Part shown: positions 3,585 through 47,445 of the stretch, in pieces
Layout of the letters: each line of letters begins with the position of its first letter
How positions within the stretch are numbered: position 1 is the stretch's first letter
From: Fibrobacterota bacterium
GTDB taxonomy: Bacteria; Fibrobacterota; Fibrobacteria; UBA11236
DNA: 64,000 bases
Assembly: GCA_028287505.1 (NCBI GenBank)
Contig: JAQBPN010000060.1
Span: 32,001 to 96,000 of the forward strand
Direction: 5' to 3'
Made by a program: the position numbers and the translations under genes
Notes under the pieces: model-generated
The model's database searches: none
Seen by the model: only the letters and a program-made list of their open reading frames with translations
What the model was told of the DNA's origin: nothing

Positions 3585-6467
3585 TTACCTGACGCCCTGG
3601 CCGGATAACGGGAGCTCCGGCTTCCGGTCCATCGCCTCCCGCACCTTCCTCGCCAGTTCCGTGGGGCTGAACGGCTTCTGCAGGAAGGGTTCGCCCGCAT
3701 TGATCAATCCCCGGTGGACCACCGAGTTTTCCGTATATCCGGAAATGAAAAGGATGGGCAAGGCCGGCCTCAAGGTCTTCACGCGCTCCGACAAGGCCTG
3801 TCCGCCCACGTCCGGCATGACCACGTCCGTGACGATGAGTTGGATGGGGGTATCGCTCTTCTCCAGCACGTCGAGCGCTTCGCGGCCGTTGCAGGCGGTG
3901 AAGACCCGGTAACCCTGGGATTCCAGGACCTGTACGGCGAAGCGCCGCACCGATTCCTCGTCCTCCACCAGCAATAGGGACTCCCGGCCCCGCAGGTTTT
4001 CCGGATTCGCCGCGCGCGGCGAATCGACCGGCGCGGCGTCGTTTTGCACCGCCCTGGGAAAGTACACGCGGAAGGTGGAGCCCATTCCCGCCTCGCTGTA
4101 GACGTTGATGCTCCCGCCGCTCTGCTTGACGATGCCGTACACGCTGGAAAGGCCCAGGCCCGTGCCTCTTCCGGCCTCCTTGGTGGTGAAGAAAGGCTCG
4201 AAGAGTTTGCGCTTGACATCCTCGGTCATGCCCGTGCCCGTATCGCTCACGGCCAGCATCACATAGCTCCCCGGCGTGGAATCCAGATGGGTGGCCACAT
4301 AGGAATCGTCCAGATCGATATTCGCCGTTTCCAGCGTCAGCTTTCCGCCCTGCGGCATCGCATCCCTTGCGTTGAGGACCAGGTTCAGGATGATTTGCTC
4401 GACTTGACCGCGATCCACCTTTCCCCAGCAGGCCTCATTGCAGGGCTTCACCGCCATGTCGATGTCCTCGCCGATGATCCGGCGCAACATGCCTTCCATT
4501 CCCAGGAGGATTTCGTTGAGGTCCCATAGCTTGGGCGCCAGATTCTGCTTGCGGCTATAGGCCAGCAATTGTTTGGTGAGCCCGGCGGCGCGCTCCCCGG
4601 ACTTGAGGATCTCCTGGAGGAATTCCTTGATCTGGCCTTCCGGATGCAGGGCGTCCAGGGCCATTGAACTATACCCGTTGATGGAGGTGAGCAGGTTGTT
4701 GAAGTCATGGGCGATGCCGCCCGCCAGGCGCCCCACCGCTTCCATCTTCTGTCCCTGACGCAACCGATCTTCGGCGAACTCCTTCTCCTGGGTGGCCTTT
4801 TTCTTTTCCGTGACGTCCCGGTAGTTGGCGAGGATGCCGCCCACCAGGGGATCGCCGGTGAGGTTGACGACGCTGCCTTCCACCCAGCGCCAGGAGCCGT
4901 CCTTATGCCGGATGCGAAACTCCACTTCCAGGCGGTTCCCCGATTTGGCGAGGATCGATCGCAGGTTCCTTTTCACGAGGGGCAGGTCTTCCGGGTGGAT
5001 GAGGGAGAATCGATGCATCCCCATGAACTCCTTGTCGGTATACCCGAGCACCTTTTCCGTGGAGGCGCTGGCATAGCTGATTAATCCGTCACCGGTATAG
5101 ATGGCGATGGCGTCGGTGCTGTTTTCGATCAAAGCCCGGAAGCGGCGTTCGCTGCGCATCATTTCTTCCCGGACGCGCTTGCTTTCGTCGATGTCCACGC
5201 AGGCGCCGATGTATCCGATGAACTCGCCCTCGGCCGTATAGCGGGGGATGCCATGGCCCAGGAACCAGCGGTATCCGCCCATGGCGTCGCGCATCCGGAA
5301 CTCCACGCGGAACGGGCGCTGGGCATCCATGTCGGTGAGGAAGATGCCTTGCAAGGCCGCGTAGTCCTCCGGATGGATGGACGCTTCCCATCCGCCGGAG
5401 AGGGCTTTTTCCATCGGCAGGCCCGTGAACTCCACCCATGGGCGGTTCACGTAGACGCACCTTCCCCGGACATCCGTGATCCAAATCAGCACGGGAGCGT
5501 TGTTGGCCAGGACCCGGAAACGCTCCTCGCTTTCCTTCAGGGCCTCTTCGCTGATTCTGCGCGCCAGGAAAAAGCCTATCTGGTTGGCGATGGAAGAGAT
5601 GGCTTCCATCATGGCGGTATCCGGATCGGGCGTGTGCCTGCCGAAGAACTCGAAGACGCCATGCACTTCGCCTCCCAGCAGCACGGGGAAAGCGTAGGCC
5701 GAGCGCAAATCGTCCTGCTCCGCCTCCGGGGATCGCGCGAATCCGCGGCCCTGGACATGCATGATCCACTGGGAATGTTTCAGTTCCCAGATCCATCCCG
5801 GAAAGCCTTCGCCTTTGCGGAACCGGGACCGCAGGGTCCGTTCGCGGAAGTCGCCGATGCGGGCGCCGGGCACCGCGCAAGCGTGGGAGCAGATCAGGAT
5901 GTCCCCGGCCCGGCGCCAGAAAGCCCCGAATCTCCAAGGCTCCAGGTTGCAAATGGTTTCCAGGATGTCCGCTCCCGCGGCCTCCAGGGAAGGGGATTCC
6001 GTGAGGATGCGCAGAATGGCATTCTGGACTTCCAGCCTTTGCTGCGCCCGCTTCGGCTCCGCAAGGTCGCGCAGATAGGCGATGAAGATCCAGGTGCCGC
6101 CGCGCCGGACGGGAGTGACGGCAAGCTCGATGGGGATTTCCTGCCCGTCACGGTGCATGGCGCCCATTTCCAGGCGTCGGCCGAGGATGGGGCCTTCGCC
6201 GGTACGGAGGAAGTGCTCGAAACCCCGGCGGTGGTGCTCGCGATAGCGATCGGGAACCAGGAATTCGGCCATGACCCGGCCGACGGTTTCCTTTCGGGTC
6301 CACCCGAAGAGGGCCTCCGCCCGGCCGTTCCAGTCCATCACCCGCCCGTGGTCATCAATGGTGACCACGGCGTCCAGGGATGCGGTGAGAATCAGGCGAT
6401 AAAGATCCCCTTGGTCGTTATCCGAATGGGCGGGAAACGGCTTGGGACCGGGACCGGGATCCGACAT
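3585..6467 (-). CDS. Multi-sensor hybrid histidine kinase (PAS-GAF-PAS-PAS-HisKA-HATPase-REC)
   Basis: 960 residues without membrane segments, so a cytoplasmic sensor. Domains in order: PAS (about 20-140), GAF (about 150-305), PAS (310-435), PAS with PAC (440-560), HisKA (575-645) with phospho-acceptor His587 in GIAHDFNNLL, HATPase_c (685-805) with the N-box NLVLNARDAM and G-boxes DTGTGM and GTGLGL, and a receiver domain (828-945) with acceptor Asp881 in VTDVVMPD. All catalytic residues are present. This is the soluble hybrid-kinase type; its output partner is not encoded next to it. The start ATG has no Shine-Dalgarno; TTTTAT lies just 5 bases upstream, so the message may be leaderless. It is transcribed toward the VWA gene pair and away from tRNA-Ser. 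Confidence 0.9.
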   Translation of the reverse strand: MSDPGPGPKPFPAHSDNDQGDLYRLILTASLDAVVTIDDHGRVMDWNGRAEALFGWTRKETVGRVMAEFLVPDRYREHHRRGFEHFLRTGEGPILGRRLEMGAMHRDGQEIPIELAVTPVRRGGTWIFIAYLRDLAEPKRAQQRLEVQNAILRILTESPSLEAAGADILETICNLEPWRFGAFWRRAGDILICSHACAVPGARIGDFRERTLRSRFRKGEGFPGWIWELKHSQWIMHVQGRGFARSPEAEQDDLRSAYAFPVLLGGEVHGVFEFFGRHTPDPDTAMMEAISSIANQIGFFLARRISEEALKESEERFRVLANNAPVLIWITDVRGRCVYVNRPWVEFTGLPMEKALSGGWEASIHPEDYAALQGIFLTDMDAQRPFRVEFRMRDAMGGYRWFLGHGIPRYTAEGEFIGYIGACVDIDESKRVREEMMRSERRFRALIENSTDAIAIYTGDGLISYASASTEKVLGYTDKEFMGMHRFSLIHPEDLPLVKRNLRSILAKSGNRLEVEFRIRHKDGSWRWVEGSVVNLTGDPLVGGILANYRDVTEKKKATQEKEFAEDRLRQGQKMEAVGRLAGGIAHDFNNLLTSINGYSSMALDALHPEGQIKEFLQEILKSGERAAGLTKQLLAYSRKQNLAPKLWDLNEILLGMEGMLRRIIGEDIDMAVKPCNEACWGKVDRGQVEQIILNLVLNARDAMPQGGKLTLETANIDLDDSYVATHLDSTPGSYVMLAVSDTGTGMTEDVKRKLFEPFFTTKEAGRGTGLGLSSVYGIVKQSGGSINVYSEAGMGSTFRVYFPRAVQNDAAPVDSPRAANPENLRGRESLLLVEDEESVRRFAVQVLESQGYRVFTACNGREALDVLEKSDTPIQLIVTDVVMPDVGGQALSERVKTLRPALPILFISGYTENSVVHRGLINAGEPFLQKPFSPTELARKVREAMDRKPELPLSGQGVR

Positions 6468-6551: not shown

Positions 6552-6638
6552 CGGAGATGGAGGGAGTCGAACCCCCGGACCGCTTTCACGGACTTCTGAT
6601 TTCGAATCAGACGCAATAGACCACTCTGCCACATCTCC
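6552..6638 (-). tRNA. tRNA-Ser (anticodon CGA)
   Basis: Read on the minus strand, the 7-bp acceptor stem GGAGATG/CATCTCC closes a class II tRNA with a long variable arm, an anticodon stem TCTGA/TCAGA with loop TTCGAAA (anticodon CGA, for UCG codons) and the T-arm motif GGTTCGACTCC. The discriminator is G, as in serine tRNAs. The 3' CCA is not encoded. Confidence 0.95.
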
Positions 6639-13526: not shown

Positions 13527-14603
13527 TCAATGCGTAGCGTCTCGGCCGTAGCGGATGAGCGTGCCGTAAGGCGCAGGAAATATTCGCCCTTGCAAATCGG
13601 TCATATCCACGGTGAGGGTCGCGGGTGCCAAGATGGATTTCGATGCGGCCTTTGCCGGTAAGGCGGTAGGGTTCGGCCGTGCGTTGTAAATCGCGTTGAG
13701 CAAGGATGTCGATGCCGATTTCGTATCCAGGGACGATTCCCAGAACATGATGCCGCCGCCGCTGTCCGCGGCAAGCTTGGTTTTTTTCTGCATGGTGGGG
13801 ATGCCGTTGTAGTAAAAGCCGTTGTATTCGTCCCGGTTCGCGGCGGTCGGGTCGGCGGCTATGATAGCACTGTAATTCATGTCCCCGTAAGCGGCGTTGC
13901 GGCCGTAAAACGGCACCCCGAGGATGATTTTGTCTTTGGGCAAGCCGCGTTTTTTCCAGAAATTCAAATCGATAAGCGATTTGTCATAACCCGAGTGGGG
14001 GGCGGCGGCATGATCATAGGCCATGATATTGAGGAAATCCACGATATCGAATACCGCGGTTTCAATCGCATACCCGAACGTGCCGACGCTGCCGCCTACC
14101 ACGGCGGCGGTGACCAGCTTGCTTTTCGCGTGCATTTTCGCGGCGAGCTCGGTCATCATCGTCGTGAAATTCTTGCTGTCAGGGTCAGGTGCTTCTTTCG
14201 GATATTCCCAATCGATATCGATGCCGTCGAGGTTGTACTTCACCAGCATGGCATCGCAGTTGTTGATGAACGTCGCGCGGTAGCCGGCATTGGCGGAGAT
14301 GGCACGGAAATACGTATCGTTATTGCCGCCGCCGCCGCCGATTGAGACAAGCACTTTGACGCCTTTTGCATGCGCGGCCGCGACAAGGTTGCGCAAGAGG
14401 CCGTCATTGGGATTGTTAAGGCCCCCGGTACCGCTTCCTACTGTGACAAAGGCATAATTCACATGCGTCAACTGGCTGAAATTAAGGGAGGCGCTTTGAT
14501 CGCCTGACCAGTCCACGACATAGCCGATTATCTTGAACTCCGCCGAAGCGGAAGCAAACATGGCGAGACCGAGGATCAGCATGCATTGACTGAATGATTT
14601 CAT
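13527..14603 (-). CDS. Secreted GH18 chitinase-like glycosidase
   Basis: 358 residues. The first 21 form a signal peptide (MLILGLAMFASASA). The GH18 hallmarks are present: the SIGG strand motif (here extended to five glycines) at ~87-93 and DGIDIDWEY at 126-134, with Glu133 as the catalytic acid and Asp131 as its helper; MAYD and the tryptophan of MFWE close the barrel. It should hydrolyse chitin or a related beta-1,4-GlcNAc polymer outside the cytoplasm. The last ~40 residues (LPAKAASKSILAPATLTVDMTDLQGRIF) look like a short remnant of the sorting-domain fold. The start ATG has no Shine-Dalgarno of its own and directly follows the TAG of a 15-codon ORF with a strong one (separate entry). It is divergent from the DAHP synthase unit. 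Confidence 0.9.
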   Translation of the reverse strand: MKSFSQCMLILGLAMFASASAEFKIIGYVVDWSGDQSASLNFSQLTHVNYAFVTVGSGTGGLNNPNDGLLRNLVAAAHAKGVKVLVSIGGGGGNNDTYFRAISANAGYRATFINNCDAMLVKYNLDGIDIDWEYPKEAPDPDSKNFTTMMTELAAKMHAKSKLVTAAVVGGSVGTFGYAIETAVFDIVDFLNIMAYDHAAAPHSGYDKSLIDLNFWKKRGLPKDKIILGVPFYGRNAAYGDMNYSAIIAADPTAANRDEYNGFYYNGIPTMQKKTKLAADSGGGIMFWESSLDTKSASTSLLNAIYNARPNPTALPAKAASKSILAPATLTVDMTDLQGRIFPAPYGTLIRYGRDATH

Positions 14604-14765: not shown

Positions 14766-14794
14766 TTGACCGGAAGTCCGCGGAGCGATATCTT
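14766..14794 (+). promoter_or_regulatory. Promoter of the DAHP synthase leader
   Basis: TTGACC (14766-14771), exactly 17 bases, then TATCTT (14789-14794). A start site near 14801 would place the leader-peptide ATG (14805) only a few bases from the 5' end, so the leader would be nearly leaderless. It is the best-formed promoter between the chitinase and DAHP synthase genes. Confidence 0.6.
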
Positions 14795-14804
14795 TACCCA
14801 TAGA

Positions 14805-14867
14805 ATGCGTCACGTCTCCAGCAACTCGTATTTCTTCTACTTCTGGCGGGAAACCACCGGGGGATAG
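14805..14867 (+). CDS. Aromatic-rich leader peptide of the DAHP synthase attenuator
   Basis: A 20-residue ORF whose codons 9-14 read Tyr-Phe-Phe-Tyr-Phe-Trp (14829-14846): six consecutive aromatic residues. The end products of the pathway controlled by the downstream gene are exactly Phe, Tyr and Trp. The ORF ends in TAG at 14865-14867. The bases coding for its Thr-Gly-Gly end (14857-14863) can pair with the left arm of the terminator. This is the classical arrangement of a ribosome-mediated transcription attenuator such as those of trp and pheA. No Shine-Dalgarno is visible; with the promoter at 14766-14794 the transcript would begin about 4 bases before the ATG. The peptide itself needs no function. 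Confidence 0.85.
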   Translation: MRHVSSNSYFFYFWRETTGG

Positions 14868-14906
14868 GGAATTCGAGCGTCTTGAGGCCGAACCACCAAC
14901 CCCCGG
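14857..14906 (+). promoter_or_regulatory. Antiterminator of the DAHP synthase attenuator
   Basis: CCGGGGG (14857-14863), inside the end of the leader ORF, is perfectly complementary to CCCCCGG (14900-14906), the left arm of the terminator: seven G-C pairs with a 36-nt loop. The two hairpins are mutually exclusive. A ribosome stalled on the aromatic codons leaves 14857-14863 free and favours antitermination; a ribosome at the TAG (14865) covers it and releases the terminator arm. A short GNRA-capped pairing (GG-GAAA-CC at 14848-14855) may serve as the pause hairpin. Confidence 0.75.
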
Positions 14907-14926
14907 GAATCCCCGGGGGTTTTTTT
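14899..14926 (+). terminator. Intrinsic terminator (attenuator) upstream of the DAHP synthase gene
   Basis: Perfect 9-bp stem ACCCCCGGG/CCCGGGGGT (14899-14907 with 14912-14920), loop AATC, and a run of seven T (14920-14926). It lies between the leader peptide and the DAHP synthase start at 14997, where a plain terminator would make no sense unless it is conditional. Confidence 0.9.
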
Positions 14927-14996
14927 ATTACTCCCGGGGCCGGGGCGCGTCCGCACGAAACGTGGGACCGTCCGGGCCGGATTGAAAGAGGAAGCC

Positions 14997-16055
14997 ATGC
15001 CGACTACAGAAAACCTCAATATACGGGAGATCGTACCCTTGATAGCTCCGGGAGAATTGAAACGGATACTGCCGATGGACGATGCCGCCATCGCCACCGT
15101 GGTCGAAAGCCGCAAGATAGTGCAGGCGATCCTGGCGGGGGAGGATCCGCGCATCCTGGCCATCGTGGGGCCCTGTTCCATCCATGACACGGATGCGGCG
15201 CTGGAATACGCAAGGCGCTTCAAGGCCCTGCGCGACAAGGTGGGGGACAAACTCTTCTTGCTCATGCGCGTCTACTTCGAAAAGCCCCGCACCACGGTGG
15301 GATGGAAAGGTTTCATCAACGATCCCTTCCTGGACGATTCCTGCGATATATCCACGGGGGTGCGCGAGGCGCGCCGGCTGCTGCTGCAGATCAATGCCAT
15401 GGGCATTCCCGCCGCCACGGAATTCCTGGATCCGATCGTGCCGCAGTACATCGCGGACCTGATTACCTGGGCCGCCATCGGGGCGCGCACCACCGAATCC
15501 CAGACCCATCGGCAGATGGCCAGCGGCCTGTCCATGCCCGTGGGCTTCAAGAACGGTACCGACGGGAACATCCAGGTGGCAGTGGATGCGTTGCAGTCCG
15601 CGCGTTTCGCCCACAATTTCCTGGGACTGGATTCGGATGGCCGCACCGCCATCGTCAAGACGCGCGGGAACCCGTGGGGCCACGTGGTGTTGCGCGGCGG
15701 GCGCACCAAGCCCAACTACGACCCGGAGAGCATCGCGGAGGCTTCGGAACAATTGAAGAAGGCCGGCCTGGAGGCCCGCCTGGTGGTGGACTGCAGCCAT
15801 GGCAACACCCAGAAGCGCCACGAGCTGCAGGAAGTGGTGTGGCACAGCATCGTCGAGCAGAAGATGGCCGGGAACACGGCCCTGGTGGGGGCGATGGTGG
15901 AAAGCAACCTTTTCGAAGGCAGCCAGAAGATACCGGGCGACAGGTCACAGCTGCGTTACGGGGTTTCCGTTACCGACCAATGCGTGGGATGGGAAACCAC
16001 GGAGCGCATGGTTCTGAAGGCCCATGAGACCATGCAGGGAGCCGCGGCGGGCTGA
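14997..16055 (+). CDS. aroG: 3-deoxy-D-arabino-heptulosonate 7-phosphate (DAHP) synthase, class I
   Basis: 352 residues. It condenses phosphoenolpyruvate and erythrose 4-phosphate, the first step of the shikimate pathway to Phe, Tyr and Trp. The start is ATG 14997 with AGAGGA at 14987-14992. Class I AroF/G/H signatures are clear: VGPCSIHD near residue 58, MRVYFEKPRTTVGWKGFINDP, GARTTESQTHR, KNGTDGNIQVA and DCSHGNTQKRH. The isozyme letter cannot be decided; the mixed Tyr/Phe/Trp leader suggests control by all three products and perhaps the only such enzyme in the cell. The gene stands alone behind the attenuator. Confidence 0.95.
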   Translation: MPTTENLNIREIVPLIAPGELKRILPMDDAAIATVVESRKIVQAILAGEDPRILAIVGPCSIHDTDAALEYARRFKALRDKVGDKLFLLMRVYFEKPRTTVGWKGFINDPFLDDSCDISTGVREARRLLLQINAMGIPAATEFLDPIVPQYIADLITWAAIGARTTESQTHRQMASGLSMPVGFKNGTDGNIQVAVDALQSARFAHNFLGLDSDGRTAIVKTRGNPWGHVVLRGGRTKPNYDPESIAEASEQLKKAGLEARLVVDCSHGNTQKRHELQEVVWHSIVEQKMAGNTALVGAMVESNLFEGSQKIPGDRSQLRYGVSVTDQCVGWETTERMVLKAHETMQGAAAG

Positions 16056-47370: not shown

Positions 47371-47445
47371 GGCGTTCCCAAGGGGATTCGAACCCCTGTC
47401 GGCGCCGTGAAAGGGCGCTGTCCTAGGCCTCTAGACGATGGGAAC
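47370..47445 (-). tRNA. tRNA-Glu (anticodon TTC)
   Basis: Acceptor stem GTTCCCA/TGGGAAC, D-arm GTCTAGAGGCCTAGGAC, anticodon stem CGCC/GGCG with loop containing TTC, T-arm AGGGGTTCGAATCCCCT, discriminator G and encoded CCA. The accessory region ends at this gene; tRNA genes are frequent integration sites, but no second copy of its 3' end is seen. Confidence 0.95.

What the first reader, a model, noticed from the sequence alone, without database searches (positions are those of the whole stretch)
14766..15005. Complete ribosome-mediated attenuator with a Tyr-Phe-Phe-Tyr-Phe-Trp leader on a DAHP synthase gene
Promoter, 20-residue leader ORF with six consecutive aromatic codons, a 7-bp all-GC antiterminator (14857-14863 with 14900-14906), a 9-bp terminator with seven T and the DAHP synthase gene follow each other within 240 bases. 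The aromatic run mixes all three end products, so one leader could sense Phe, Tyr and Trp together. Leader-peptide control is textbook for trp and pheA; for DAHP synthase it has been described, as far as I recall, only in Corynebacterium (aroR-aroF). In this lineage it may be undescribed.
Basis: partly seen in the sequence, partly recalled or inferred. Interest (0 to 1): 0.8.

Follow-up and report, generated by a model that had tools for sequence, protein, structure and literature searches.

The report
Aromatic-sensing attenuator before DAHP synthase gene
A short leader peptide packed with tyrosine, phenylalanine and tryptophan codons, followed by switchable RNA hairpins, very probably turns on the first gene of aromatic amino acid synthesis when any of these amino acids runs short; similar switches stand before the same gene in several other bacterial phyla.

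Summary
Promoter, 20-codon leader (MRHVSSNSYFFYFWRETTGG*), antiterminator, terminator and a class I DAHP synthase gene (TIGR00034 aroFGH) lie where stated. Dinucleotide shuffles do not reproduce leader plus terminator (0 of 3000). All six available genomes of the genus carry the element; five keep six aromatic codons with Tyr, Phe and Trp, one keeps only three. Three competing hairpins (1:2 pause, 2:3 antiterminator, 3:4 terminator) fold in all six. With a modelled ribosome footprint, the antiterminator can form while the A site is on the aromatic codons and is blocked within one or two codons after the last one. The leader ATG lies only 7-13 nt (once 22) behind the -10 box, so it is probably read without a Shine-Dalgarno site. 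Prior art: Corynebacterium aroR-aroF, an Acholeplasma aroF uORF, hypothesised E. coli/Shewanella aroF attenuators. A new, widely distributed member of a known kind. No expression data were available.

The parts
14766..14794 (+). sigma-70-type promoter TTGACC-17-TATCTT
   Evidence: scan; TTGACC-N17-TATCTT identical in all six genus members
14805..14867 (+). leader peptide ORF, 20 codons, MRHVSSNSYFFYFWRETTGG*; ATG 10 nt after the -10 hexamer, no Shine-Dalgarno site
14829..14846 (+). regulatory codons TAT TTC TTC TAC TTC TGG (Tyr-Phe-Phe-Tyr-Phe-Trp); also the 5' arm of the 1:2 hairpin
14832..14871 (+). pause/anti-antiterminator hairpin 1:2 (aromatic codons with CCGGGGGATAGGGAA)
   Evidence: MFE folds of all six genus members; full transcript fold
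14857..14906 (+). antiterminator hairpin 2:3; base CCGGGGG (14857-14863) with CCCCCGG (14900-14906), extended by inner pairs (GG/CC and TTCG/CGAA)
   Evidence: formation depends on ribosome position
14898..14926 (+). intrinsic terminator 3:4, stem 14898-14921, T7 at 14920-14926
   Evidence: folds in all six genomes
14987..14994 (+). Shine-Dalgarno AGAGGAAG of the DAHP synthase gene
   Evidence: sequence
14997..16055 (+). class I DAHP synthase (aroFGH type), 352 aa
   Evidence: TIGR00034 477.5 bits and NF009395 514.2 bits; PF00793

Best explanation
A trp-type, ribosome-mediated transcription attenuator. Transcription starts a few bases before the leader ATG, and a ribosome begins the leader with little or no 5' leader RNA. 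If charged tRNA for Tyr, Phe or Trp is short, the ribosome waits in the aromatic run. Its body keeps the 5' arm of hairpin 1:2 from pairing but leaves region 2 free, so 2:3 forms before region 4 is made, the terminator cannot form, and DAHP synthase is transcribed. If all three are plentiful, the ribosome moves on to the stop codon, covers region 2, and 3:4 terminates transcription. Without translation, 1:2 plus 3:4 is the equilibrium state. Because a stall at any of the six codons should suffice, the leader acts as an OR sensor for the three end products. Shown here: anatomy, conservation, competing folds and position of the switch point in silico. Inferred: leader translation, tRNA-charging control and in vivo termination.
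For: Anatomy. Chance 0 of 3000. Six genus members conserve promoter, leader frame, the C-terminal GG and stop, and terminator, although flanking sequence differs. Two relatives gained a codon and lost one aromatic residue yet keep six aromatics (SYFFYFW, YSFYFFW, YFPYFFW). Three alternative hairpins in all six. Footprint model: before region 4 is made, P(2:3) is about 1 with the A site on the aromatic codons and drops to 0 within one or two codons after the Trp codon, with three footprint sizes; with the largest footprint the Trp codon itself gives about 0.6 (0.12 in G005). At equilibrium the same window of antitermination appears in four of six genomes. Other phyla: 46 clear leaders, all Phe+Tyr, 22 with Trp; region 2 complementary to the terminator 5' arm at p<=0.05 in 21 of 47, against 2-3 expected.
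Against: No expression data. Pair counts do not show covariation beyond shuffles within the genus, since the sequences are too alike. In the window genome itself the 2:3 helix is weakened (GGGGGA instead of GGGGGTT), so at equilibrium the terminator wins at every ribosome position and the switch must rely on co-transcriptional order. In one search the ribosome-free truncated transcript also favours 2:3 in most genomes, so default termination without translation is not certain. One genus member (G001) has only three of the aromatic codons.
Confidence: 0.92

Rival explanations
1. The leader senses mainly one amino acid (for example Phe or Tyr); the other aromatic codons are neutral by position or tRNA supply, as in Corynebacterium aroR, where Phe but not Tyr matters.
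For: Review PMC11802643 reports that Tyr availability does not affect aroF despite a Tyr codon in AroR. The Trp codon is a single, last codon at the edge of the switch window, and G001 lacks it.
Against: Five of six genus members keep Trp as the last aromatic codon although codons before it changed; 22 of 46 leaders elsewhere also include Trp; the model lets a stall at Tyr, Phe or (two of three footprints) Trp codons switch.
Confidence: 0.35
2. The terminator is constitutive or belongs to an unrelated small transcript, and the leader ORF is a chance or non-regulatory peptide.
For: In the window genome the terminator is the equilibrium state at all ribosome positions.
Against: Shuffles, conservation of reading frame and alternative arms, and the same arrangement before the same enzyme in other phyla.
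Confidence: 0.04
3. A riboswitch, T-box or RNA-binding protein controls the terminator and the leader peptide is secondary.
For: The post-stop sequence GGGAATTCG is almost invariant in the genus, which might suggest a binding site.
Against: No Rfam family matches; the invariant bases are explained by pairing in both 1:2 (GGGAA with TTCTT) and 2:3 (TTCG with CGAA).
Confidence: 0.04

Closest known systems
Corynebacterium glutamicum aroR-aroF attenuator (Neshat 2014, as cited in PMC11802643; PMC4046766)
   Same: Leader peptide with aromatic codons and attenuator directly before a DAHP synthase gene; a leader peptide without ribosome binding site is also reported in that species (ilvBNC leader, cited in PMC4046766)
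   Different: There Phe-Tyr-Phe only and responsive to Phe, not Tyr; here six codons including Trp, in an unrelated lineage; homology of the leaders not tested
E. coli trp (trpL) and pheA (pheL) leaders
   Same: Regulatory codons in the 5' arm of hairpin 1:2, competing 2:3 and 3:4 hairpins, terminator before the structural gene
   Different: Controls the first enzyme of the common pathway, mixes three amino acids, leader ORF near-leaderless
uORFC-13-1 motif upstream of aroF in Acholeplasma (PMC8632094)
   Same: uORF with Phe codon(s) and terminator before a DAHP synthase gene
   Different: Different organism and consensus, only Phe noted, confined to Acholeplasma and environmental sequences
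Hypothesised aroF attenuators in E. coli and Shewanella (Camakaris 1980, as cited in PMC2659441)
   Same: Attenuation before a DAHP synthase gene
   Different: Proposed for Tyr; no comparable six-codon mixed run described in the passages read

Membership tests
ribosome-mediated (trp-type) transcription attenuator | short leader ORF with a run of codons for the pathway's product(s) | tested here: met
ribosome-mediated (trp-type) transcription attenuator | intrinsic terminator between leader and structural gene | tested here: met
ribosome-mediated (trp-type) transcription attenuator | antiterminator exclusive with the terminator, with region 2 covered by a ribosome at the leader stop and free when it waits at regulatory codons | tested here: met
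   (in silico)
ribosome-mediated (trp-type) transcription attenuator | 1:2 hairpin that includes the regulatory codons | tested here: met
   (in silico)
ribosome-mediated (trp-type) transcription attenuator | compensatory changes in the pairing arms | tested here: inconclusive
   pairing kept but covariation not above shuffles with six similar sequences
ribosome-mediated (trp-type) transcription attenuator | read-through depends on charged tRNA and leader translation | not testable with these tools
   needs RNA-seq or reporter fusions
aroR-aroF type (DAHP synthase leader) | downstream gene encodes DAHP synthase | tested here: met
aroR-aroF type (DAHP synthase leader) | homology of the leader/gene pair to that of Corynebacterium | not tested
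   no Corynebacterium locus was aligned; working alike is claimed, not common descent
T-box or riboswitch | match to a known Rfam aptamer or T-box | tested here: not met

The most novel reading that the evidence does not exclude
A DAHP synthase together with its own mixed-aromatic attenuator forms an old module found in several phyla (Desulfatitalea order, Latescibacterota, Chloroflexota, this genus), partly spread by gene transfer; in this genus it was acquired as a ready-regulated enzyme beside an unattenuated beta-type DAHP synthase, and integrates Phe, Tyr and Trp supply by OR logic in a near-leaderless leader.
Probability: 0.45. Interest if true: 0.6.

Novelty: new member of a known kind. 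Interest (0 to 1): 0.45.

Why it matters
Control of the entry step of aromatic amino acid synthesis is taught through the repressors TyrR and TrpR and through allostery. A mixed Phe/Tyr/Trp leader on DAHP synthase in several phyla would show that many bacteria sense several end products at once by translation speed, in groups where no regulator of the pathway is known to me. The natural variants (codon shifts that keep six aromatics, and one member down to three) give a ready test set.

Tried and rejected
Rfam scan for a known leader or riboswitch: none. Covariation in the genus: uninformative. Search for further copies of the element in the own genome: one exact match (the window's), and other hits at three mismatches at about the rate of the reversed control pattern. 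Leaders before trpE, a second chorismate-binding gene and the prephenate dehydratase gene of the same genome: none found. Beta-type DAHP synthase of the same genome: no leader. Plasmid collection: no match. First alignment of genus upstreams was wrong because two loci were stored reversed; redone. Papers searched for prior DAHP synthase leaders; no aroF/DAHP mention in Naville 2010 or Seliverstov 2005. Lopatovskaya 2010, Vitreschak 2004, Panina 2001 and Neshat 2014 were not read; these are the likeliest places for prior art that I missed.

Full report
Observation. The promoter-like pair (14766-14794), leader ORF (14805-14867), arms CCGGGGG (14857-14863) and CCCCCGG (14900-14906), terminator (14898-14926) and the gene start at 14997 are all present as described. 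The gene product is a class I DAHP synthase: TIGR00034 aroFGH, 477.5 bits against a cut-off of 173.2; PF00793. In dinucleotide shuffles of the 350 nt upstream, 0 of 3000 gave a leader with at least 6 of 7 aromatic codons plus a terminator, and 1 of 3000 gave at least 5 of 7.

Conservation in the genus. The same DAHP synthase is found in all six available genomes of the genus (82-94% identity in the relatives; one short terminal fragment 78%) and in none of 115 other sampled relatives. All six have TTGACC-N17-TATCTT, then a leader, then a terminator. Leaders: MRHVSSNSYFFYFWRETTGG, MRNAFSSSYFFYFWRETAGG, MCNVPSNAYFFYFWRETSGG, MRNATYSTYSFYFFWRETSGG, MHKLIAAAYFPYFFWRETPGG, and MGNIQANAYFFSSRRATLGG (G001). 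Two members carry an extra codon and a replaced aromatic, but the total of six aromatics with Tyr, Phe and Trp is kept. G001 keeps only Tyr-Phe-Phe; its gene is split over two contigs, so this locus deserves a second look.

Structure. In all six, three hairpins can form: 1:2, where the aromatic codons pair with region 2 and the GGGAA behind the stop (-11.8 to -23.2 kcal/mol); 2:3, antiterminator (-25.0 to -30.0); 3:4, terminator (-18.6 to -23.7). This dual pairing explains why GGGAATTCG behind the stop codon is nearly invariant. Pair counts show 84-88% of cells paired, generally less when partners are slid (for 3:4 a slide of +1 still gives 83%), but no covariation beyond shuffles, so covariation support is inconclusive.

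Ribosome geometry. Masking a ribosome footprint and folding the transcript before region 4 is made gives P(2:3) of about 1 while the A site is on the aromatic codons, falling to 0 one or two codons after the Trp codon. The position holds within a codon for three footprint sizes; with the largest, the Trp codon itself is at the edge (about 0.6; 0.12 in G005). At equilibrium with the complete terminator, four genomes switch within the aromatic run; the window genome and G001 stay terminated, so for the window genome the mechanism depends on 2:3 forming first. In the window genome the weak point is GGGGGA instead of GGGGGTT. In the same truncated transcripts, the ribosome-free RNA also favours 2:3 in five of six genomes, so basal termination without translation is uncertain.

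Leaderless initiation. The distance from the -10 hexamer to the leader ATG is 7, 10, 10, 12, 13 and 22 nt. With a usual start 6-8 nt downstream of the -10 box (general knowledge), the leader would have about 0-6 nt of 5' RNA in five genomes, and no Shine-Dalgarno sequence. This is inference; leader peptide formation without a ribosome binding site is on record for Corynebacterium ilvBNC (title cited in PMC4046766).

Other lineages. Of the 80 nearest DAHP synthase loci from other genomes, six have the same arrangement: one Latescibacterota, four Chloroflexota and one Desulfatitalea, against about 0.05-0.15 expected from shuffles. Targeted samples then gave 27 of 30 loci in the order of the Desulfatitalea genome, all seven members of the Latescibacterota clade and a few Chloroflexota. 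One weak Chloroflexota call (L117) I do not count as clear. The 22 mainly cyanobacterial rows and the 29 Verrucomicrobiota/Chlorobiota-type rows of the tree have none, which serves as a negative control. Of 46 clear leaders (the window genus included), all mix Phe and Tyr and 22 add Trp. The segment behind the aromatic run is complementary to the terminator 5' arm at p<=0.05 in 21 of 47 loci. On a quick tree of 161 enzymes, leader presence needs 12 changes against 40.8 for shuffled labels. The nearest rows to the window genus are leader-bearing Latescibacterota enzymes, but the deep branches are open, so common origin versus repeated gain is undecided.

Context in the genome. The same genome has a second, beta-type DAHP synthase without a leader. 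No leader was seen before trpE, a second chorismate-binding gene or the prephenate dehydratase gene. The attenuator therefore appears tied to this enzyme rather than being a general habit of the aromatic genes checked; this fits, but does not prove, arrival of gene and attenuator together.

Known relatives. Corynebacterium aroR-aroF has Phe-Tyr-Phe and responds to Phe, not Tyr (PMC11802643; PMC4046766). An Acholeplasma aroF uORF motif is described in PMC8632094. An aroF attenuator for E. coli/Shewanella is listed in PMC2659441. I found no description of mixed Phe/Tyr/Trp leaders on DAHP synthase in the lineages seen here, but several comparative papers could not be read.

Noticed in passing
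L123-L152 (order of the Desulfatitalea genome), upstream of DAHP synthase: Leaders with long, nearly unbroken aromatic runs (e.g. ALYYYFYYYYYYSALPGVR*, RNFYFWYYFFTTHLPGVR*), many ending in a similar LPGVR or LPxVR tail.
   Followed up: partly
L128, L131, L134, L140, L147, L148, L152: The strongest hairpin before a T run lies further downstream and its 5' arm pairs 61-101 nt behind the aromatic run, as if two hairpins stood in tandem.
   Followed up: no
L007 (G001), leader at about 1358-1420: Genus member whose leader keeps only Tyr-Phe-Phe while the 1:2 hairpin is strengthened by U to C changes; the gene is split over two contigs.
   Followed up: partly
G000:C17:23041-23748 (L089): Second DAHP synthase of the beta (Bacillus) type in the same genome, without an upstream leader.
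   Followed up: yes
window 13527-14603 (-): Divergent neighbour resembling a chitinase (ChiD_Serratia model, far below its cut-off).
   Followed up: no
window 6552-6638 and 47373-47445 (-): Two tRNA genes (Rfam RF00005).
   Followed up: no
window 3585-6467 (-): Large hybrid histidine kinase with PAS domains, nearest to CckA-like models but below their cut-offs.
   Followed up: no
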